From: a virus
IMG/VR virus record: IMGVR_UViG_3300043137_000163
Span: 1 to 21,178 of that record
DNA: 21,178 nucleotides
Reading direction: 5' to 3' (one strand)
A program made the position numbers and the translations under genes. The notes beneath the pieces were generated by a model, which was not told where the DNA came from, made no database searches, and saw only the letters and a list, made by a program, of their open reading frames with translations. Positions 3,243-18,165 of the stretch are shown piece by piece. Position 1 is the first letter of the stretch; each line of letters starts with the position of its first letter.

Positions 3243-3538
3243 TGGAAATTAAGTGCTACCAATTAATTAATGGTCAGGACATCATGGGTGAAGCTACTGA
3301 CATGGGCGAGACAATCGTTCTACGTAAGCCAGCATCAATCCATTTGGTACCTTCTCAACAAGGTAACCAACAATCATTTGGTGTGGCTTTAATGCCATTT
3401 ACACCTTATGCAGAATTTGATAAGGTTACACTCCGCAAGGATAAAATCATGCTCGAATTCGATGCTACTGTAGACCTTGCAAACAACTACAGTAAAATGT
3501 TTGGCAGCGGAATTCAAATCGCAAATGTAATGCCTTAA
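3242..3538 (+). CDS. Small beta-rich protein, possibly Sm-like, 98 aa
   Basis: Two adjacent ATGs are possible, 3239 and 3242. GGAG at 3231-3234 sits seven bases from the second and only four from the first, so 3242 is preferred. The protein begins MEIKCYQLINGQDIMGEATD, continues IVLRKPASIHLVPS, then ALMPFTPY and VTLRKDKIMLEFDA. This strand pattern, with a GxxIxGE-type turn followed by a strand with a bulky hydrophobic residue, is reminiscent of an LSm/Hfq-like barrel. Similar short proteins occur near gene 43 in other T4-like aquatic phages. The fold is inferred from pattern only, and RNA binding is not demonstrated. The stop lies one base before the hairpin of the gene 43 promoter. Confidence 0.6.
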   Translation: MEIKCYQLINGQDIMGEATDMGETIVLRKPASIHLVPSQQGNQQSFGVALMPFTPYAEFDKVTLRKDKIMLEFDATVDLANNYSKMFGSGIQIANVMP

Positions 3539-3570
3539 ACCTGTACAGCAGGTAAAAACTGTGATATAAT
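3539..3570 (+). promoter_or_regulatory. Promoter of gene 43 with hairpin/operator over the -35
   Basis: TGTACA (3542-3547), a 17-base spacer and TATAAT (3565-3570) preceded by TG (3562-3563) form an extended -10 promoter. ACCTG (3539-3543) pairs with CAGGT (3549-3553) around TACAG, so the -35 sits inside a dyad. The expected start of transcription is about 3577, the first base of the gene 43 ATG. A close relative lies at 8149-8182 and a partial one at 18236-18267. Confidence 0.8.
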
Positions 3571-6329: not shown

Positions 6330-6770
6330 ATGAGTAGTAAATGGGTAAGTGATATTTCAGATATGCATACAAAGTTTGGCGTAAACAAAGTTTTGCGTGA
6401 ACTTGATAAAGAAAAGCTTGAAGCATTCTTGAAGTTTCGTATTGACTTCTTACAAGAAGAACTTGATGAAATGCGTAAAGCGTTAGTTGATTATCAGGTT
6501 GGCGCTGTTGATGGTCTACAAGCGGCAGACGATACAGTTGATGCTTTGATTGATTTGTGTGTGGTTGCTATTGGTACACTAGATGCATTCGATGTTGATA
6601 CAGATGAGTCTTGGAATCGTGTTCATGATAAGAACATGCAAAAGGAAGTTGGTATTAAAGCCTCTCGTCCAAATCCATTAGGTTTGCCTGATTTGATTAA
6701 GCCAGAAGGTTGGACTGCACCAATGCATCACGACAACATTGGTTTGTTATCTAAAGTGTATGGCTGTTAA
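6330..6770 (+). CDS. MazG-like all-alpha NTP pyrophosphohydrolase
   Basis: The 146-aa protein has the helical MazG / phosphoribosyl-ATP pyrophosphohydrolase signature. QEELDEM supplies the E44-x-x-E47 pair, and ADDTVDALIDLC supplies D68-x-x-D71 plus D75, expected to bind Mg2+ for cleavage of a nucleoside triphosphate to the monophosphate and pyrophosphate. The tail W..VHDKNMQKE and SRPNPLGLPDLIKPEGW resembles phage homologues in cyanophages. The ATG follows AGGAG at a good distance. The substrate is not determinable. In a phage predicted to replace cytosine, dCTP removal (the role of T4 gp56, also an all-alpha pyrophosphatase) would be useful; this is inference only. Confidence 0.8.
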   Translation: MSSKWVSDISDMHTKFGVNKVLRELDKEKLEAFLKFRIDFLQEELDEMRKALVDYQVGAVDGLQAADDTVDALIDLCVVAIGTLDAFDVDTDESWNRVHDKNMQKEVGIKASRPNPLGLPDLIKPEGWTAPMHHDNIGLLSKVYGC

Positions 6771-7161: not shown

Positions 7162-8150
7162 AATACTCTTTGACAGCCTTTGGTTCTATTTTCGATAATA
7201 AAACCCATAGGCAAATACATCATGATTCGTGGGAGTCTTTTGAAGCGATGCTATATAAGATGGCAGAGACTCCAGGATACAAACTAAAGAAGGGCGAGCG
7301 CAAAGCACCGAAAGGTCTTAAGGCGTCACCTCTAATTTCACCAGCAGTTTTCCCTGAAGGTAAGACTCGAGCTAACGATAATGTAACTGAGTGGGCAGGC
7401 TGGGCAGCACTTGATATTGATGATCACAAATTTGAAGGTGATCTTCAGAAAGAACTTCATGCTAAGTACGGCTCTTATTATTACGTTTGTTATTCTACTT
7501 CTAGTAGTACACTCGACCATCCAAAGTTTCGACTTGTATTCCCACTTAAAGTTTGTGTGCGAAAGGAGAACATCAAACAATTTTGGTACGCACTCAACAA
7601 GGAATTCGACGGACTCGGAGACGGGCAGACTAAGGACCTATCTAGAATGTATTATGTACCTGCTGTATATCCAGGTGCTAATAATTTTATTTTTACTAAC
7701 GCTGGTGATTTTGTTAATCCTAATGCTTTAATTGAAAAGCATCCAATGGTTGTTGTACAAAACAGTGTACAGACATTCATGGATAGATTACCATTGGAAG
7801 TTCAAAAGAAAGTTCTTAATCATCGCGAAGAACTTCTAAAAGGTAAAGCTAATTATGACTATGAATGGTCGTCATATTCTGATTGCCCATTCGTCAACAA
7901 GAAAATGATTAATGATTATCGAATGATCTCTGGGTCTGATGGCTCAGGCCGTTATTCAATGATCTATAAAATCATGACATCAATCGCATGTAATGCTATC
8001 AAGCGTAAGTATCCTATTAGCTCTTCACAAATTGCTGAGATGATTCGACAACTTGATAGAGACACTGCAAACATCTACTCAAAACGACCATTGAACACTG
8101 AGGCTGAACGCGCATTAGAATATGCATATAAGACAGTTGAGATCATTTAA
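7158..8150 (+). CDS. AEP-type primase-like protein
   Basis: The 330-aa protein shows the archaeo-eukaryotic primase / prim-pol pattern. Motif I is WAALDIDDHK with D86 and D88, motif II is YSTSSSTLDHPKFRLVFPL with S/H121 and R125, and a later block DLSRMYYVPAVYPGA contains the acid-plus-basic motif III region. The phrase SSxxxxHPKFRLVFPL is typical of plasmid and phage primase-like replication proteins. The C-terminal third (about 215-330) is helical and could be a primase C-terminal or helicase-interaction domain. The chosen ATG overlaps the previous stop as ATGA. T4 uses a DnaG-type primase, gp61, which is not in this window. Whether this protein replaces or supplements gp61 is unknown. Confidence 0.65.
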   Translation: MKYSLTAFGSIFDNKTHRQIHHDSWESFEAMLYKMAETPGYKLKKGERKAPKGLKASPLISPAVFPEGKTRANDNVTEWAGWAALDIDDHKFEGDLQKELHAKYGSYYYVCYSTSSSTLDHPKFRLVFPLKVCVRKENIKQFWYALNKEFDGLGDGQTKDLSRMYYVPAVYPGANNFIFTNAGDFVNPNALIEKHPMVVVQNSVQTFMDRLPLEVQKKVLNHREELLKGKANYDYEWSSYSDCPFVNKKMINDYRMISGSDGSGRYSMIYKIMTSIACNAIKRKYPISSSQIAEMIRQLDRDTANIYSKRPLNTEAERALEYAYKTVEII

Positions 8151-8182
8151 CCCTGTACTGCGGGTTAAAACTGTGATATAAT
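8149..8182 (+). promoter_or_regulatory. Promoter of the nuclease / DNA-modification operon
   Basis: TGTACT (8154-8159), a 17-base spacer, and TATAAT (8177-8182) with TG at 8174-8175. It shares 20 consecutive bases around the -10 with the gene 43 promoter. AACCC (8149-8153) pairs with GGGTT (8162-8166) over the -35, in the same place as the gene 43 hairpin but with a different stem sequence. The expected start is about 8189. Confidence 0.8.
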
Positions 8183-8210
8183 AGATCTATTCGTAACTAA
8201 CCAATACATC

Positions 8211-8657
8211 ATGAAATCTTGTGAACAACTTCAGCAACTTAATTCATTGCTGCTGAATTTAAACATTAATGAATTATGGTCTAATGCACAACATATTAGA
8301 ACTGTAAAATTGACTAAGAAATTTACAATTGAAGATATTGTAAATGATAGTAAATTATTTACTAAGTCGTATGGTGTTTATAAAGTAACTGTTGTTGGAT
8401 CTAAAGAAACTGCATACGTTGGAATGGCACTACGATCTAATGGCGCTCGTCGTGCTTATTCACATTTGTATTCTTTTATGAGTGGTCGTAAAACTGAATC
8501 AACTGGAAAGCATCTACGCAGTATTGTAGAGAATACTACTGATGGTGTTATTTTGACATTTGACTTTATCGATCTGACTAATACGCCATTGTTAATTTCA
8601 GCAATTGAGCAAAGATCAATTAAGCATTTTAAACCAATTATCAATTCACAAGTATGA
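8211..8657 (+). CDS. GIY-YIG family endonuclease
   Basis: The 148-aa protein has the GIY-YIG nuclease layout: YGVYKV (G55, V56, Y57), AYVGMA (Y69, V70, G71), the catalytic Arg region GARRAYSHL (R80/R81), E133 in the metal-binding helix, and KPIIN with N145. A roughly 50-residue N-terminal extension precedes the domain. T4 endonuclease II (DenA, 136 aa) has the same arrangement and cuts unmodified cytosine-containing DNA. That role would fit the adjacent hydroxymethylation genes, but free-standing homing endonucleases also use this fold. It is the first gene after the promoter and has no Shine-Dalgarno. Its stop overlaps the next start. Confidence 0.75.
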   Translation: MKSCEQLQQLNSLLLNLNINELWSNAQHIRTVKLTKKFTIEDIVNDSKLFTKSYGVYKVTVVGSKETAYVGMALRSNGARRAYSHLYSFMSGRKTESTGKHLRSIVENTTDGVILTFDFIDLTNTPLLISAIEQRSIKHFKPIINSQV

Positions 8658-9082
8658 CTAACCAAGAAATCTTAGGTGACTTAGGCGAGATCTTCTATCA
8701 ATCTCGCTTTGGCGGTACACTATCAAACTATAAGTATGATTCTGATAAAGATCTAGTGCATGATAATGGTGATGAAGTTGAAATTAAAACACAGTCGCGT
8801 CATCCCAATGGTTCATTTACTGTAAATGTAAAACATACAACTAACTTACGTAAATGCTTAAATGTCAAAAAACTAGTATTCATTGAATATAGTAATAGTG
8901 ATACTATTATTGTTCATGAATGTACTAACAGAAAATATTACACTACAACAACTCGTGATGGGCGAACAATGGCATGTTTTGACATTGAAGAAATGACAGT
9001 TGTTGATAAAGTAACATTGCCTAAGTTAGCAAAACTTATGCGATATCACTCTAGCTCTAAAACTTTAAAATGGATCGACTAA
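8654..9082 (+). CDS. PD-(D/E)XK nuclease-like protein
   Basis: The 142-aa protein shows the restriction-endonuclease-fold pattern: an N-terminal helix with E12 (LGDLGEIFYQSRF), then D33 in SDKDLVHD, and E43-I-K45 in EVEIKTQS. The spacing D-x9-E-x-K fits the family. The rest alternates strands and helices (KKLVFIEYSNSDTIIVHEC) without a recognised specificity domain. It overlaps the GIY-YIG gene as ATGA, and the two nucleases probably form one translational unit. Possible roles are host DNA breakdown or DNA repair. No methyl- or base-specific reader can be identified by eye. Confidence 0.65.
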   Translation: MTNQEILGDLGEIFYQSRFGGTLSNYKYDSDKDLVHDNGDEVEIKTQSRHPNGSFTVNVKHTTNLRKCLNVKKLVFIEYSNSDTIIVHECTNRKYYTTTTRDGRTMACFDIEEMTVVDKVTLPKLAKLMRYHSSSKTLKWID

Positions 9083-9397
9083 ATGAAATTTGATGAAGGC
9101 AAACCACAACTCGGTTTAATTCCACCAGAAGCACTGATTAAAATTGCTACAGTGCTTGGCTTTGGCGCTGCTAAGTATGGCGTCAACAATTGGCGTGATG
9201 ATGGTGGTAACTCCCCTTGGATTCGCACTTACTCTTCAATCCAACGCCATCTAACTGCTTGGCATGCTGGCGAAGATCTTGACCCTGAATCAGGTCAGTC
9301 ACATCTTGCTCATGCAACTACACAATTAATTATTCTCATGATCCACCAAATGGAACACCCTGAATGTGATGATCGCTATAAGAAGGAAGTAAAATGA
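9083..9397 (+). CDS. dATP/dGTP diphosphohydrolase-like protein (DUF5664 type)
   Basis: The 104-aa helical protein carries the signature KFDEGKPQLGLIPPEAL, FGAAKYGVNNWR, RHLTAWHAGEDLDPESG and HLAHATTQL. This matches the MazG-related family annotated as dATP/dGTP diphosphohydrolase, N-terminal, frequent in phages. Members are thought to hydrolyse dNTPs to shape the nucleotide pool. The ATG follows the previous stop directly, and AAGGA within its 3' end serves gene 42. Together with the MazG-like gene at 6330 it is a second candidate dNTP pyrophosphohydrolase. Which dNTP it attacks here is unknown; a dCTPase-like role is possible only as speculation. Confidence 0.75.
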   Translation: MKFDEGKPQLGLIPPEALIKIATVLGFGAAKYGVNNWRDDGGNSPWIRTYSSIQRHLTAWHAGEDLDPESGQSHLAHATTQLIILMIHQMEHPECDDRYKKEVK

Positions 9398-10065
9398 TTA
9401 GAAATTATGTAGACGATATTCGTCGTGAATTTATCCATAAGCTTGAAAATGAAAAGTTTGTAACTGATAAGGGTGGTCAAATGACTATCGAAATTATCAA
9501 TGCCTCTTTCATTGCTGATGAGAATTCTATCTTTGGTGTAGTCAATGAAGACTATGTTGCTCGTGAACTTGAATGGTATCGCTCATTGTCATTGTGTGTG
9601 AATGATATTCCCGGCGGTCCACCTGCAATCTGGAAACAAGTTGCTGATAAGTATGGACGCATCAATTCAAATTATGGTTGGTGTATCTACTCTGCAGATA
9701 ACGGTCATCAGTTCTCTAAAGTTGTAAATGAACTTGTTGCATCACCACTGTCTCGTCGTGCAACTATGATTTACATTCGTCCAACAATGCATGAAGATTA
9801 TTGCCGTGATGGTATGTCTGACTTCATGTGCACCTACTCAACTCAATATTATATTCGTGATGGTAAACTGCATGCATCAGTGTTCATGAGATCTAATGAT
9901 GCAGTATATGGTTATAAGAATGATTATGCATGGCAACATTATGTACATAAAGAAGTGCTTCAAGCAGTCAATGGTCGCAGCGGTACTGTATATGGTCTTG
10001 GTGATCTTCACTGGAATGCTGGTAGCTTACATGTCTATGAACGCCACTTTGATTTAATTGCTTGA
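9394..10065 (+). CDS. 42: dCMP hydroxymethylase, gp42-like
   Basis: The 223-aa protein is a thymidylate-synthase-fold enzyme very close to T4 gp42, which makes 5-hydroxymethyl-dCMP from dCMP and methylene-tetrahydrofolate. Shared blocks include ELEWYRSLSL, INSNYGW, DGMSDFMCT with catalytic C146, and RSNDAVYGYKNDYAWQ. In the last block D177 occupies the position of the conserved Asn of thymidylate synthases; an Asp there is the known switch to dCMP. It lacks about 22 residues found at the T4 C-terminus. AAGGA at 9383-9387 is a good ribosome binding site. Its product would need an hm-dCMP kinase (T4 gp1), not seen in this window. Confidence 0.95.
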   Translation: MIRNYVDDIRREFIHKLENEKFVTDKGGQMTIEIINASFIADENSIFGVVNEDYVARELEWYRSLSLCVNDIPGGPPAIWKQVADKYGRINSNYGWCIYSADNGHQFSKVVNELVASPLSRRATMIYIRPTMHEDYCRDGMSDFMCTYSTQYYIRDGKLHASVFMRSNDAVYGYKNDYAWQHYVHKEVLQAVNGRSGTVYGLGDLHWNAGSLHVYERHFDLIA

Positions 10066-10066
10066 T

Positions 10067-10513
10067 ATGAAAGAAACTAAGTGGGCTAATCGTTATATGT
10101 CTATGGCGAAAGAAGTTTCGTCATGGTCTAAAGACCCTAACACTAAGATTGGCGCAATCGCTGTAGGGTCTAAAGGTCAAATCTTGTCACAGGGATTTAA
10201 TGGTTTCCCACGTGGTATTTTTGATTTTGAAGATCGTCTAAACGATAGAGAAACAAAGTACAAATACGTAGTTCATGCTGAAATGAATGTCATATATAAT
10301 GCTACGTATTCTGGAATATCTTTAGACGGCGCTAAGCTTTTTGTTTATGGGTTACCTGTTTGTAGTGAATGCTGTAAAGGCGTCATTCAAGTGGGTATTA
10401 GTGAAGTCTATATCTCAGAAGAATGTTTAAATCTGCGACCACATTGGCATGAGTCATGGTTGCAATCTGCTGAGATGTTCAGCGAAGCAAATGTAAAGGT
10501 GTATGTAATATGA
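10067..10513 (+). CDS. cd: dCMP deaminase
   Basis: The 148-aa zinc enzyme converts dCMP to dUMP. The catalytic set is H70-A-E72 in VVHAEMNVIYNA and C99/C102 in PVCSECC; GFNGFPRG contributes to the substrate pocket, as in other dCMP deaminases. It is shorter than T4 Cd (193 aa) but of normal bacterial size. The reading frame is open from a TTG at 10058, but the ATG at 10067, one base after the gene 42 stop, is the natural start. It draws on the same dCMP pool as gp42, and its dUMP feeds ThyX encoded at 16535. The last codons contain AAAGGTG, the ribosome binding site for agt. Confidence 0.93.
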   Translation: MKETKWANRYMSMAKEVSSWSKDPNTKIGAIAVGSKGQILSQGFNGFPRGIFDFEDRLNDRETKYKYVVHAEMNVIYNATYSGISLDGAKLFVYGLPVCSECCKGVIQVGISEVYISEECLNLRPHWHESWLQSAEMFSEANVKVYVI

Positions 10514-11715
10514 AAATCGCAATCATTATGGGACGTGGCATTGAAGGATGTGGCGTAACTAAGTTTACTGTAGAGCAAACTAAATGGTTAGCAAAGAATG
10601 GATATGACTTCACAGTCTTTTCATCAAAAGACAAGTCGTGGACTCGTAAGAATGCTCATGATGTTTCTAATGTTATCCAATTGAAGTTGGCCAAAGCAGA
10701 CGAAGCACAAAAGATGATTGATGGCTGTAATGAAGCTGATGTAGTTATCATTAACAGTCTTCCATCTTTGTCACATCCAGAAGCAGCTATTGAGCAATTC
10801 AAGCGTGCTCTCAAGGAAATTAAAAAGCCAGTTGTATTGATTCAACATGATCACTCTTCATTGTCTATTAAGCGTAACGCTTGTATTGAAGAAGCTGTTA
10901 AGAAATCTGACATCTTGTTTGGTCACTCAGATACTAACGATTTTGCACGATATGTTACAGAGGTAACTGCATCTGGTCTTGATTCATTCATGGGTGGTGA
11001 TGATACTAGTAAGACTATTCTTAACTTCCAGCCAGGCATTGATTTTGCTTCAGTACGTTCTAAGTATTGGAAAGATATCGCTGAGCAAGATGAACTCCAC
11101 AATAAGTGGATTGGACGTACTACAAGTTGGAAAGGTTACAAACAAATGTTTGCATTCCACAATCAGTACTTACGTCCTAATGGTTATATTACTACCTTTG
11201 AAGGTATTGAAAAGTCACCAGCATATCTTGCTTTCCGTGAACTATCAGAGTTCCATGGCTTGATTGATAAAGATATTGCTACATCTTCAATTGCAATCAA
11301 TCAACCAGCATATGTGTTTGGACCGTATGTTAATGAGCAAATGCTTGAACGTATGTCAAAGGTTGCGTTTGGTTATCAACTCTCTTTGTTAGATGAGCGA
11401 TTCATCCAACGATCAATTGAATATACACATTGTGAACTTGCTGCAGTTGGTGTAGTACCAGTCTTCCGTAAAGCTTATGGCGAACGTTGTACTCATCGTG
11501 CTCAAGGTAAAAAGTTTATTGATTGTAAAGATACTGGAACGATTTGGCTTGATGATAACGATATGCAACCAGCCTTTGACGTACTAGATAAATTATCTAA
11601 AGACCGTGGAATGCGTAATGAGTATCGTGAAATGGCTTATGAATTCTATAAGTCACACCAAGATGCAGAACATACATTCAGTGAAATGATGACTCTTATT
11701 AAAGAAAGACTATGA
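10510..11715 (+). CDS. agt: DNA alpha-glucosyltransferase, T4 AGT homologue
   Basis: The 401-aa protein matches T4 AGT (400 aa) along its length. The N-terminal strand and loop are IIMGRGIEGCGVTKFT (T4 has a nearly identical segment). It also has IQHDHSSLSIKRN, NKWIGRTTSWKGYKQMF, LERMSKVAFGYQLS, YTHCELAAVGVVPVF and WLDDNDM. AGT is a GT-B enzyme that transfers glucose from UDP-glucose to 5-hydroxymethylcytosine in DNA, shielding it from host restriction. With gene 42 two genes upstream this predicts glucosylated hmC DNA. The start overlaps the cd stop as ATGA and the stop overlaps the MTase-like gene in the same way. The linkage (alpha) is inferred from homology; the sugar is not proven. Confidence 0.95.
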   Translation: MKIAIIMGRGIEGCGVTKFTVEQTKWLAKNGYDFTVFSSKDKSWTRKNAHDVSNVIQLKLAKADEAQKMIDGCNEADVVIINSLPSLSHPEAAIEQFKRALKEIKKPVVLIQHDHSSLSIKRNACIEEAVKKSDILFGHSDTNDFARYVTEVTASGLDSFMGGDDTSKTILNFQPGIDFASVRSKYWKDIAEQDELHNKWIGRTTSWKGYKQMFAFHNQYLRPNGYITTFEGIEKSPAYLAFRELSEFHGLIDKDIATSSIAINQPAYVFGPYVNEQMLERMSKVAFGYQLSLLDERFIQRSIEYTHCELAAVGVVPVFRKAYGERCTHRAQGKKFIDCKDTGTIWLDDNDMQPAFDVLDKLSKDRGMRNEYREMAYEFYKSHQDAEHTFSEMMTLIKERL

Positions 11716-12917
11716 CAATTAAACATGCAAGTATCGTCCCGTTAATTGGTGGACAAACCTTGGGACAAGAGAAAGCTATGGGAAGTCGGCCTGAATGGCT
11801 GGCTTCTTTTGAAGCCTTTGCCTCCAATGATTCACATGCAGTGAATCACTATAAAGACCTTCCATATTACGTTATGGATAAAGGTACACACTCTCCAAGT
11901 AAAGTAAATGTCATCTCGACGACTTGCCCATGCGCAGGTCTGTCGTCGTTATCTGCAGGTGCTTCTTCTGATGCTGCTGCAAATGATTGGATGTATAAGA
12001 CTGCTGAATTAGTTTTAGGTACATGGAAACCAGATGTGTTCTGGGGAGAGAATGCACCAGGGTTTGCTGGCAAGGTAGGCAAACCAGTCGTAGAGAAACT
12101 GCATGCAATTGCTAAAGAGCATGGTTATGTAATGTCAATCTATCGTACAAAATCTCAGCTTCATGGAATTCCACAAATTCGTGAACGTTCATTCTACTTT
12201 TTCTGGCGTGGTACTCGCGCACCAGTCTTCAACTTCTACAAGAAACCATGGACACGCATTGAAGACCTTATTGCCAATATGCCACAGAACTTAACTCAAC
12301 ATACTGTGACTAATGACAAAATTCCAACAAAGACTGATCCTTGGTATCGTTATGTGCTTGAGAAGATGGAAGGTGGAATCTCACATCGAGAGTTTTTCGA
12401 CAAGATTGAAAAGACTGATAACGCGATGGACTGGGTAGAACGTAACAATGTTTCGTATCTAGAAGTAGGTAAATGGATGGCAGAGAATAACTATCCAAAC
12501 ATTGAAGCACGTTGTAAACGTATTCATGAGAAGTTAGGTCGCGGTGAAAATATCATGCGCAGATTGACTACCATTCCAAAGAATTACATTGGTGCTTTCG
12601 TTGGTCACTATCCAACTATGCTAACTCATCCTTATGAAGACAGATACATAACTTATAGGGAAGCAATGACAATCATGGGATTGCCTCATGACTTCGAGTT
12701 GTTAAACCCTAAGGCAAACTTGAACCACATCTGTCAAAACGTGCCAGTAGGTACCGCTTCAGACATGGCGTTCGAGATTAAAGAATTCCTTGAAGGTCGC
12801 AGAGATACAGTCGATGCAACAGATAGAATTCTTTTACAATACAACCACAGTGAATCTCAGGACTTCAGAGATATGATTGAAGTTCCAAAAGCTTCACTAG
12901 ATGGTTTCTTCCTGTAA
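11712..12917 (+). CDS. C5-cytosine methyltransferase-like protein
   Basis: The 401-aa protein has the C5-MTase motif order. A divergent motif I is at the N-terminus (SIVPLIGGQTLG). Motif IV is TCPCAGLSSLS with the putative catalytic Cys in PC, motif VI is WGENAPGF (EN pair), motif VIII is GIPQIRER (QxRxR), and motif X-like is VPVGTASDMAF at the C-terminus. A target-recognition region would occupy roughly 170-330. It is translationally coupled to agt through ATGA. Canonical enzymes have PCQ and a FxGxG motif I, so this is a divergent subfamily. Activity on cytosine would be surprising if the phage replaces cytosine with hmC. No cognate restriction endonuclease gene adjoins it. Confidence 0.8.
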   Translation: MTIKHASIVPLIGGQTLGQEKAMGSRPEWLASFEAFASNDSHAVNHYKDLPYYVMDKGTHSPSKVNVISTTCPCAGLSSLSAGASSDAAANDWMYKTAELVLGTWKPDVFWGENAPGFAGKVGKPVVEKLHAIAKEHGYVMSIYRTKSQLHGIPQIRERSFYFFWRGTRAPVFNFYKKPWTRIEDLIANMPQNLTQHTVTNDKIPTKTDPWYRYVLEKMEGGISHREFFDKIEKTDNAMDWVERNNVSYLEVGKWMAENNYPNIEARCKRIHEKLGRGENIMRRLTTIPKNYIGAFVGHYPTMLTHPYEDRYITYREAMTIMGLPHDFELLNPKANLNHICQNVPVGTASDMAFEIKEFLEGRRDTVDATDRILLQYNHSESQDFRDMIEVPKASLDGFFL

Positions 12918-12924
12918 TAAAATG

Positions 12925-12933
12925 TGATATAAT
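12925..12933 (+). promoter_or_regulatory. Extended -10 promoter of uvsX
   Basis: TGTGATATAATAG repeats the extended -10 of the gene 43 and 8149 promoters (TG at 12925-12926, TATAAT at 12928-12933). The -35 at 17 bases is a poor TTTCTT. CCTGTA is present but eight bases closer than in the other promoters. The expected start is about 12940, seven bases before GGAG. Confidence 0.6.
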
Positions 12934-12959
12934 AGTTCAATACTTTGGAGAATATAAAG

Positions 12960-16545: not shown

Positions 16546-17209
16546 ATTAGTATCATATAGTAAACCATCACGTGAGTTTTATTCAGAAGGTCTTTTAGAT
16601 GTTCAGGATTTGATTGCCTTTTGTGCACGTGTATCAAATCCATCTAATCAATTGAATGCAGGCACTGCAGATAAGCTTATTCGTTATTTGATTAAGCACC
16701 AACATTGGTCACCATTAGAAATGGTTTCTGCTTGTATTGAGATTGAAACGACACGTGATATTGCTCGTCAAATTTTACGTCATCGTTCATTCTCATTCCA
16801 AGAGTTCTCACAACGATATGCAGATCCAACTAAAGACTTAGATTTTGTACTTCGTGAAGCACGCTTGCAGGATACAAAGAATCGTCAGAATTCTATTGAG
16901 ACTGATGATGTTGAATTGCAAGTTTGGTGGGATGCTAAACAAAAGTTCTTAATTGATTATGTTCGTGAAACGTATGCTCAAGCGATTGAAAAGGGTATTG
17001 CTAAAGAACAAGCACGTTCAATCTTACCAGAAGGTAATACTGTAAGCCGTATGTACATGAATGGTACATTGCGTTCTTGGATTCACTTTATTCAATTGCG
17101 TGCTGGTAATGGTACTCAAAAAGAACACCGTGAAGTAGCATTAGCATGTGCTAAAGTTATTGCTGAAATCTTCCCAATGGCTACAGAGTTAGTTACATGC
17201 GAATCTTAA
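16535..17209 (+). CDS. thyX: Flavin-dependent thymidylate synthase ThyX
   Basis: The 224-aa protein carries the ThyX signature RHRxxSxxxxSxR exactly, as RHRSFSFQEFSQR at residues 82-94. It also has the flavin/nucleotide-binding blocks HQHWSPLEM and LRSWIHFIQLRAGNGTQKEHREVA. ThyX methylates dUMP to dTMP using FAD and NADPH and releases tetrahydrofolate. The ATG at 16535 follows AAGAGGA by six bases and is preferred over the TTG at 16529. It replaces the T4 td enzyme in function. dUMP would come partly from the dCMP deaminase at 10067. Its stop overlaps the epimerase start. Confidence 0.96.
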   Translation: MEVKLVSYSKPSREFYSEGLLDVQDLIAFCARVSNPSNQLNAGTADKLIRYLIKHQHWSPLEMVSACIEIETTRDIARQILRHRSFSFQEFSQRYADPTKDLDFVLREARLQDTKNRQNSIETDDVELQVWWDAKQKFLIDYVRETYAQAIEKGIAKEQARSILPEGNTVSRMYMNGTLRSWIHFIQLRAGNGTQKEHREVALACAKVIAEIFPMATELVTCES

Positions 17210-18165
17210 TCACAGGAGGCTTAGGCCTTATTGGACATAATGTTGTTAAGAGATTGAAAGCCAATCATGATCTATTGATCGTTGATACCATGACTAATTA
17301 TGGTATCATCCCTCAAGATCAAATGACCTACTTGTTCAATCAACGATTGCAAAAGATTGAAACACCGCGTGATCCATTGAATATTCGTGTGGTGGACATT
17401 GCTGATCGTCAGGTGATGCGTGAAATCTACAAAGATTTTAAACCTGAGATTGTTATGCACTTAGCAAGCTTTCCTCGTCAAAAGGTTGTTAATGCTAACC
17501 CTCAACTTGGCTCAAAGACTATGTCAGAAGGTTTGTTAAACCTATGTGAATTGTCTGAAGAGTTTAAAGTAGAGAAGTTCTTATACATTAGTTCATCAAT
17601 GGTATATGGCGAATTTACTCATTGTATTAAAGAAGATGAACCATGCTATCCAGAAGGTCAGTATGGAATTATGAAACTTGCAGGAGAATGGCTTGTTAAA
17701 GATTATGCTCGTCGTAACGCTTTTAGTTACACTATTATACGCCCCAGTGCTGTATACGGTGAACTCGACGTGGAAGATCGAGTCATCTCTAAGTTCTTAC
17801 TAACAGCAATGCGTGGTGGAACACTAAAGGTTAATGGCATTAAAGAAGTGTTAGACTTCACGTATGTTGAAGATGCTGCTGATGGAATTGTTGCTGCTAC
17901 ACTAAGTGAGAACACTCATAACAAAACTTACAACATTACTAAAAGTCATAGCGTAAGTTTGTATGATGCTGCTGAGATGGCTGTCAAACTTGCAGGTAAA
18001 GGTGACATTGAAGTTCGTGATAAAGATGCAGACTTTCCAAGTCGTGGTGCATTAGATATCTCAGCTGCTCGTCGAGACTTTGGATATGATCCAAAAGTAG
18101 ACGTTGAAGAAGGCTTTGAAAAGTATTACTTTTGGTTAAAGAATTCTTCTTACTTTAACAAATAA
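17197..18165 (+). CDS. NAD-dependent nucleotide-sugar epimerase/dehydratase (extended SDR)
   Basis: The 322-aa protein is an extended short-chain dehydrogenase. It has the N-terminal GGLGLIG Rossmann motif (G7/G10/G13), the Asp-containing VDTMTNYG end of strand 2, ISSSMVYGE with the catalytic Ser region, and Y156-x3-K160 in QYGIMKLAGE. The C-terminal half has RPSAVYGE and DFTYVEDAADGI, typical of UDP-glucose 4-epimerase relatives. It could make a modified nucleotide sugar for surface or DNA glycosylation; the substrate cannot be read from sequence. It is coupled to thyX by a 13-base overlap and ends 20 bases before a strong terminator. A possible metabolic link to AGT is only inference. Confidence 0.88.
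   Translation: MRILITGGLGLIGHNVVKRLKANHDLLIVDTMTNYGIIPQDQMTYLFNQRLQKIETPRDPLNIRVVDIADRQVMREIYKDFKPEIVMHLASFPRQKVVNANPQLGSKTMSEGLLNLCELSEEFKVEKFLYISSSMVYGEFTHCIKEDEPCYPEGQYGIMKLAGEWLVKDYARRNAFSYTIIRPSAVYGELDVEDRVISKFLLTAMRGGTLKVNGIKEVLDFTYVEDAADGIVAATLSENTHNKTYNITKSHSVSLYDAAEMAVKLAGKGDIEVRDKDADFPSRGALDISAARRDFGYDPKVDVEEGFEKYYFWLKNSSYFNK

What the first reader, a model, noticed from the sequence alone, without database searches (positions are those of the whole stretch)
8149..12917. Seven-gene nuclease, nucleotide-pool and DNA-hypermodification operon
From a single promoter, two nucleases, a dNTP diphosphohydrolase-like protein, dCMP hydroxymethylase, dCMP deaminase, DNA alpha-glucosyltransferase and a C5-MTase-like protein follow with overlaps or gaps of at most one base. 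In T4 the corresponding functions are scattered. The compact unit looks like a transferable self/non-self system: make and decorate a new base, and cut DNA lacking it.
Basis: partly seen in the sequence, partly recalled or inferred. Interest (0 to 1): 0.7.

Follow-up and report, generated by a model that had tools for sequence, protein, structure and literature searches.

The report
Phage DNA-sugaring operon with methyltransferase partner
A virus of bacteria carries a compact set of genes that makes an altered DNA letter and hangs sugar on it, and the same set in many relatives ends in an unexplained methyltransferase-like enzyme that appears tied to this chemistry.

Summary
The seven co-directional genes exist at the stated coordinates. 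Five functions hold: dNTP diphosphohydrolase domain, dCMP hydroxymethylase (T4 gp42, E 4e-75, catalytic Cys and Asp kept), dCMP deaminase, T4-type alpha-glucosyltransferase (AGT, 45%), and a C5-MTase fold. The two nuclease labels are weak. The locus is the T4 43-42-GT-uvsX locus, so 'scattered in T4' is half right.

The core is hydroxymethylase-deaminase-AGT-MTase. In 54 of 56 informative AGT loci the MTase follows, 43 of 52 measured by an exact 4-base overlap. The nucleases are passengers: nucA 2 of 34 loci, nucB 21 of 34. A self/non-self 'cut DNA lacking it' unit is not supported. In one backbone AGT-MTase is swapped for an unrelated four-gene set.

The surprise is the MTase. It ends cassettes with various sugar modules, and lies downstream of a hydroxymethylase in 36 of 37 loci, against 0 of 26 for an ordinary phage C5-MTase. 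Phage G, S-TIM5 and XG4 also pair it with a dCMP-type thymidylate synthase. Catalytic residues are invariant in 147 of 147; the cofactor loop is changed. Its reaction is unknown. New variant of a known kind.

The parts
8150..8189 (+). promoter-like element: TGTACT, 17 bases, TATAAT with extended -10 TGA; overlaps a dyad (TTTAACCC...GGGTTAAA)
   Evidence: same place in window-backbone relatives
8211..8657 (+). nucA, putative GIY-YIG-like nuclease (variable passenger)
   Evidence: sub-threshold RE_Eco29kI match; nucA homologue in 2 of 34 loci
8654..9082 (+). nucB, putative nuclease by motif reading only (DxnExK read by eye); variable passenger
   Evidence: sub-threshold DUF6998; 21 of 34 loci; dN 0.57 to L008
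9083..9397 (+). dATP/dGTP diphosphohydrolase N-terminal domain protein (PF18909); slot filled by other small ORFs (DUF1599-like in those scanned) in relatives
   Evidence: E 6.8e-29
9394..10065 (+). dCMP hydroxymethylase (T4 gp42 type), Cys146 and Asp177
   Evidence: Cys and Asp in 170 of 170 rows
10067..10513 (+). dCMP deaminase
10510..11715 (+). T4-type DNA alpha-glucosyltransferase
   Evidence: R203 and K208 in 97 of 97 rows
11712..12917 (+). C5-MTase-fold protein, catalytic motifs intact, altered cofactor motif I ([VI]PLxGG)
12923..12935 (+). next promoter-like element (uvsX unit), closing the operon

Best explanation
This is the T4-type cytosine hypermodification locus (between gp43 polymerase and uvsX) of an uncultured T4-like phage, rebuilt as one operon. 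Shown by homology: gene 3 trims a nucleotide pool; the hydroxymethylase turns dCMP into 5-hydroxymethyl-dCMP; the deaminase turns dCMP into dUMP. Inferred from T4: after phosphorylation the polymerase inserts hmC, and the AGT adds alpha-glucose to hmC in DNA, shielding it from host nucleases. The terminal C5-MTase-fold protein, nearly always joined to AGT by a 4-base overlap, is a dedicated partner of the sugaring step. My committed guess for its reaction (inferred, not shown) is that it acts at C5 of DNA cytosines that must not or cannot carry the sugar: methylating cytosines that entered as plain C, or, less likely, converting hmC at chosen sites. The two putative nucleases are exchangeable passengers.
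For: Families and active sites. Fold of the MTase: model pLDDT 88.5, VIA-align Z about 23 (rmsd 3.4-3.6, 276-327 residues) to DNMT1, M.HaeIII and M.HhaI, model residues 1-363. AGT followed by MTase in 54 of 56 informative loci (66 fetched; 1 same-contig duplicate and 9 contigs ending at AGT dropped); 46 directly, 8 with one gene between; 43 of 52 measured overlap by exactly 4 bases; the inserted genes are sugar-nucleotide enzymes in the two examples scanned (L023, L053). Hydroxymethylase upstream in 36 of 37 MTase loci with 5 kb of upstream sequence (80 fetched); 15 of 15 representatives under 75% identity. Ordinary phage C5-MTase control: 0 of 26 loci with hydroxymethylase, deaminase or AGT. 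Independent isolates: phage G has MTase gp301, two alpha-GTs, dCMP deaminase and a thymidylate synthase with Asp at the dCMP-specifying place within about 15 kb; S-TIM5/54 ThyA also has Asp; XG4 has a 47-48% hydroxymethylase. Catalytic Cys, Glu-Asn, Gln-x-Arg-x-Arg in 147 of 147 rows (repeated contigs included). dN far below dS for MTase and AGT.
Against: No DNA, nucleoside or transcript data. Hydroxymethylase does not demand the MTase: 26 of 51 hydroxymethylase loci with 6 kb downstream have neither AGT nor MTase, 12 have MTase without AGT, and nine hydroxymethylase records without it nearby lack it altogether, five of them 103-168 kb long (completeness unknown). Two AGT loci (L059, L060, AGT 43%) lack it. 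T4 lacks any such gene in this locus. The donor sugar may not be glucose. TS homologues can also make 5-hydroxy-dCMP (PMC13390438, passages).
Confidence: 0.72

Rival explanations
1. The C5-MTase is an ordinary active SAM-dependent enzyme that methylates cytosines left unmodified, protecting them from host restriction and from the phage's own C-specific nucleases.
For: C5-MTase fold and all catalytic motifs kept; motif III Asp56 in 147 of 147; putative nucleases nearby; T4 relatives with gene 42 carry C-DNA nucleases (PMC2993671, passages).
Against: One derived subfamily is used across unrelated phages although other C5-MTases exist in phages; motif I altered; hydroxymethylase phages without AGT often do without it.
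Confidence: 0.35
2. The MTase-fold protein acts on hmC itself: it removes or replaces the hydroxymethyl group at chosen sites before AGT arrives, leaving sugar-free C or 5mC at places that proteins must read.
For: Tied to dCMP-type thymidylate synthases and to sugar modules of several kinds; motif I changed in every member; C5-MTases can lose the 5hmC hydroxymethyl as formaldehyde in vitro (PMC11347137, passages).
Against: That reaction is reported at low level and under artificial circumstances; no sites known; substrate preference cannot be read from sequence.
Confidence: 0.22
3. The MTase-fold protein is a non-catalytic partner that binds DNA or AGT and steers sugaring.
For: Exact translational overlap with AGT (43 of 52); altered cofactor motif.
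Against: Catalytic Cys, Glu and Arg invariant in 147 of 147.
Confidence: 0.12
4. One reading: a transferable self/non-self unit in which the two nucleases cut DNA lacking the new base.
For: Nuclease-like ORFs in the same transcription unit; module swap at the locus.
Against: nucA in 2 of 34 and nucB in 21 of 34 loci; sub-threshold family matches only; operon genes have conflicting trees.
Confidence: 0.07

Closest known systems
T4 43-42-beta-gt-uvsX locus and alpha-gt
   Same: hydroxymethylase next to a glycosyltransferase between gp43 and uvsX-40-41; AGT 45% identical
   Different: AGT sits in the variable GT slot with the deaminase and a C5-MTase-fold gene; T4 has no C5-MTase there
RB69/Mosigvirus arabinosyl module and T6 TAGT slot
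   Same: variable sugar genes at the pol-uvsX locus (PMC6024577, passages) or at the T4 beta-GT position (PMC13390438, passages)
   Different: different transferases; no C5-MTase is mentioned in the passages read
MetaGPA environmental clusters (thymidylate synthase, PRA-PH, dCMP deaminase, carbamoyltransferase)
   Same: thymidylate synthase family with Asp at the dCMP position, deaminase and PRA-PH together on modified phage contigs (PMC8670742, passages)
   Different: the tailoring enzyme tested there is a carbamoyltransferase; the main-text search gave 0 hits for 'methyltransferase' and PF00145 and one for 'methylase', a reference title, though the search listing counted 5 of 'methyltransferase' in its longer text
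Phage TET / C5-MTase / TAGT hypermodification (recalled; paper not read)
   Same: C5-MTase beside a glycosyltransferase; one relative (L103) has a TAGT-family enzyme
   Different: the hydroxymethylase predicts hmC made at nucleotide level here; no TET model match in 12 records, but the control rang nowhere either
Bacillus phage G gp301-gp319 region
   Same: MTase relative, two alpha-GTs, GIY-YIG, deaminase, dCMP-type thymidylate synthase within about 15 kb
   Different: spread over both strands; sequences very distant

Membership tests
T4-type hmC synthesis and glucosylation pathway | dCMP hydroxymethylase with catalytic Cys and dCMP-specifying Asp | tested here: met
   alignment to T4 gp42; 170 of 170 rows
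T4-type hmC synthesis and glucosylation pathway | DNA hmC glucosyltransferase | tested here: met
   PF11440 E 5.8e-101; AGT structure sequence E 4.5e-112
T4-type hmC synthesis and glucosylation pathway | dCTP removal (gp56-type dCTPase) | not tested
   a PRA-PH domain ORF at 6330-6770 is a candidate; gp56 homology not searched
T4-type hmC synthesis and glucosylation pathway | glucosyl-hmC present in virion DNA | not testable with these tools
   no isolate, no nucleoside data
C5-cytosine DNA methyltransferase | catalytic PC, ENx, QxRxR motifs | tested here: met
   Cys, Glu-Asn, Gln, Arg, Arg in 147 of 147; Pro of the PC pair in 146 of 147
C5-cytosine DNA methyltransferase | fold | tested here: met
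   Z about 23 over model residues 1-363; Pfam PF00145 E 3.6e-15
C5-cytosine DNA methyltransferase | canonical motif I FxGxGG (recalled) and acidic motif II | tested here: inconclusive
   PLxGG in 147 of 147 instead; candidate motif II acid E/D in 48 of 147, its register uncertain; in 5 of 5 long records the PF00145 match starts at profile position 59-62, control at 2, while the window protein's match starts at 10
C5-cytosine DNA methyltransferase | SAM-dependent methylation | not testable with these tools
   needs enzyme assay
Restriction-modification or self/non-self system | conserved nuclease paired with the modifying enzyme | tested here: not met
   nucA 2 of 34, nucB 21 of 34
TET-phage hypermodification | TET/JBP dioxygenase | tested here: inconclusive
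   0 of 12 records, control silent

The most novel reading that the evidence does not exclude
A subfamily of C5-MTase-fold enzymes with an altered cofactor loop, spread over unrelated phages, is dedicated to hydroxymethylcytosine genomes and edits hmC in DNA (to C or 5mC) before sugaring, carving sugar-free sites into otherwise glycosylated phage DNA; it is the constant element to which exchangeable sugar modules are attached.
Probability: 0.2. Interest if true: 0.85.

Novelty: new variant of a known kind. Interest (0 to 1): 0.58.

Why it matters
If every cytosine enters phage DNA already hydroxymethylated, a cytosine-C5 enzyme should have nothing to do; yet this subfamily follows the hydroxymethylase and varied sugar genes in many uncultured phages and recurs in unrelated isolates. 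That makes a concrete question testable in existing isolates (phage G, S-TIM5, XG4): what does a C5-MTase do in a genome of modified cytosines? The swappable slot also predicts several unseen DNA sugars (glucuronate- or galactofuranose-type).

Tried and rejected
Single-sequence structure prediction of the MTase gave a useless model (pLDDT 33.9); the 31-row alignment gave pLDDT 88.5. A TET/JBP search was negative but its own control was silent, so nothing is concluded. An XG4 MTase scan of viral contigs found no relative. nucA and nucB gave no phage-record relatives, and nucA no PDB relative. The near-DNA search of the operon in phage records found nothing. The whole operon as one inherited block was rejected from conflicting trees and the swap. 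The count of promoter-like sites was rejected as evidence by itself. PDB sequence searches with two proteins of the alternative set gave nothing useful. Papers were seen only as search listings and passages. No statement linking this MTase subfamily to hmC was seen in the searches (open-licence full texts only, narrow term sets; one search returned nothing); this is not proof of absence.
Full report
Observation. The window is a 21,178-base virus record. Seven + strand ORFs run from 8211 to 12917 with 4-base overlaps, one abutment and one 1-base gap. Family models support dATP/dGTP diphosphohydrolase N-terminal domain (PF18909), dCMP hydroxymethylase (PHROG and T4 gp42 structure sequence, E 3.9e-75), dCMP deaminase, DNA alpha-glucosyltransferase (PF11440, E 5.8e-101) and C5-MTase (PF00145, E 3.6e-15). 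The two 'nucleases' have only sub-threshold matches. The extended -10 element TGTGATATAATAG stands before pol, before the operon and before uvsX, and nowhere else on either strand. In the window backbone this bracket recurs in 11 of 11 sequences inspected that hold both ends (window, L005, L006, L008, L010, L013, L042, L155, L156, L158, L159); three of them (L156, L158, L159), which lack AGT and MTase, also have a site inside an ORF of the alternative gene set. No + strand terminator-like site lies between.

Place. T4 has 43-imm.1-imm-42-b-gt-segA-uvsX-40-41. So the operon is the T4 hydroxymethylase locus with AGT in the glycosyltransferase slot. That this slot varies is known: RB69 has a sugar module between polymerase and uvsX (PMC6024577, passages) and T6 has TAGT where T4 has beta-GT (PMC13390438, passages). 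In a second group (e.g. L023, L025, L030, L046) the order is pol-uvsX-gp41-PRA-PH-primase-...-hydroxymethylase-deaminase-AGT-MTase, so the core keeps its order in another setting.

Core against passengers. Of 66 viral loci fetched with the AGT, one is a second piece of a contig already counted and 9 end at or in the AGT. Of the remaining 56, 46 have the MTase directly downstream, 8 with one gene between, and 2 (L059, L060; AGT 43%) lack it. The overlap is exactly 4 bases in 43 of 52 measured. Hydroxymethylase is upstream in 38 of 40 and deaminase in 39 of 40 AGT loci with 2.5 kb upstream. nucA homologues are in 2 of 34, nucB in 21 of 34, the PF18909 gene in 5 of 34 loci with 1.3 kb before the hydroxymethylase. 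The inserted genes between AGT and MTase that I scanned are a UDP-glucose/GDP-mannose dehydrogenase-like protein (L023) and an NAD-dependent epimerase/dehydratase (L053).

MTase as constant partner. A profile scan gave 542 relatives, of which the best 80 were kept, so the sample leans towards the window. Of 37 with at least 5 kb upstream, 36 have a hydroxymethylase there, 32 a deaminase, 19 an AGT; the exception (L105) starts at a contig end and has the deaminase. Among 15 representatives under 75% identity, 15 have hydroxymethylase, 13 deaminase, 7 AGT. Where AGT is missing, the genes between include weak GT-family proteins (L096), a PHROG-only family (L081), TAGT with epimerase and dehydrogenase (L103), UDP-galactopyranose mutase with epimerase (L115), sugar nucleotidyltransferase, kinase and HAD domains (L102), or a gene set like that of L155 (L109, L125, L131). 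In the opposite direction, of 51 hydroxymethylase loci (80 fetched) with 6 kb downstream, 13 have AGT and MTase, 12 MTase only, 26 neither, 0 AGT only (not thinned for near-identical contigs). Nine hydroxymethylase records without a nearby MTase have none elsewhere either, five of them 103-168 kb long (L155, L163, L165, L166, L178). A control with an ordinary phage C5-MTase (SPbeta type) gave 0 of 26 loci with hydroxymethylase, deaminase or AGT; its relatives are a different kind of phage, so this is a base rate for one family only.

Independent isolates. In 50,697 phage records the MTase finds 6 at E 1e-5: five S-TIM cyanophage records and Pseudoalteromonas phage XG4. XG4 has a 47% hydroxymethylase. 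In S-TIM5 and S-TIM54 the nearby 'ThyA' reads PLD where ordinary thymidylate synthase has Asn, i.e. the dCMP-type Asp (meaning of the position from PMC8670742, passages); they have a distant AGT, 27-29%, and no match to the T4-type hydroxymethylase itself. Bacillus phage G, found by structure and confirmed by profile (E 7e-26), has gp301 MTase, gp305 GIY-YIG, gp306 and gp313 alpha glucosyl transferases, gp309 glucose-1-phosphate thymidylyltransferase, gp317 deaminase and gp319 thymidylate synthase with PYD within about 15 kb.

What the MTase is. The A2 model (pLDDT 88.5) matches DNMT1, M.HaeIII and M.HhaI at Z about 23 over model residues 1-363. Cys74, Glu113-Asn114, Gln155, Arg157, Arg159 and motif III Asp56 are invariant in 147 of 147 rows (repeated contigs included). 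Motif I reads [VI]PLxGG in 147 of 147 instead of the canonical FxGxGG (recalled), and the candidate motif II acid is E/D in only 48 of 147; that register is uncertain. Phage G reads IFGGSASIG there. In five long records the PF00145 match starts at profile position 59-62, in the SPbeta control at 2, though for the window protein it starts at 10. So target-base chemistry is kept and the cofactor side is changed but not shown to be lost.

Exchange. L155 against L042: pol 78, primase 87, hydroxymethylase 86, deaminase 87, uvsX 90, gp41 91 per cent, yet AGT-MTase is replaced by four genes (383 and 327 aa unknown, 326 aa phrog_13881, 320 aa PLP/threonine-dehydratase-like phrog_7093) between the same promoter-like elements. 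Trees of ten taxa: AGT and MTase show no strong conflict with each other, the hydroxymethylase conflicts strongly with pol, primase, AGT and MTase. So AGT-MTase behaves as a unit, the whole operon does not. Trees of uvsX and gp41 were not built; identities only.

Mechanism. Shown by homology: hydroxymethylation of dCMP, deamination of dCMP, AGT family. Inferred from T4: insertion of hmC, alpha-glucosylation, protection. Inferred only from linkage: the MTase serves the sugaring step. Two readings lead for its reaction: methylating residual C (0.35) or acting on hmC (0.22). Loss of the 5hmC hydroxymethyl as formaldehyde by C5-MTases is reported in vitro (PMC11347137, passages), described there as happening in somewhat artificial circumstances. 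A TS homologue can also make 5-hydroxy-dCMP (PMC13390438, passages), so the exact base is not proven.

Novelty. The pathway is known; the module arrangement with a dedicated C5-MTase subfamily was not seen in the papers reached, but only open-licence texts were searchable.

Noticed in passing
L155:11141-15175: Four-gene set (two families without any Pfam or PHROG match at the limits used, phrog_13881 with a faint beta-GT likeness in a relative, a PLP threonine-dehydratase-like protein) sits exactly where AGT-MTase sits in relatives: probably an undescribed cytosine hypermodification.
   Followed up: partly
L115:4645-5031 (also L154:11120-11536): Small protein after the deaminase with sub-threshold UDG-superfamily match (E 0.0017 and 0.00079); similar-looking ORFs stand in other hydroxymethylase cassettes.
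   Followed up: no
L115:7002-8000: UDP-galactopyranose mutase (PF03275, E 8e-57) directly before the MTase: predicts galactofuranose as a DNA sugar.
   Followed up: no
window 3535-3560 and 8150-8172: A like dyad around CCTGTAC...GGT overlaps the -35 region of the pol and operon promoters, but not the uvsX one: possible operator or terminator.
   Followed up: partly
window 17197-18165: NAD-dependent epimerase/dehydratase after thyX; may alter the sugar donor of AGT.
   Followed up: partly
L040:4579-7275, L041, L044:3678-6144: uvsX, gp41 and a second MTase fragment appear in separated pieces, suggesting introns, inteins or insertions.
   Followed up: no
L228 (Bacillus phage G 216000-236000): Cluster of thymidylate synthase with Asp, deaminase, two alpha-GTs, sugar-nucleotide enzyme and MTase: suggests modified cytosine in phage G DNA.
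   Followed up: partly
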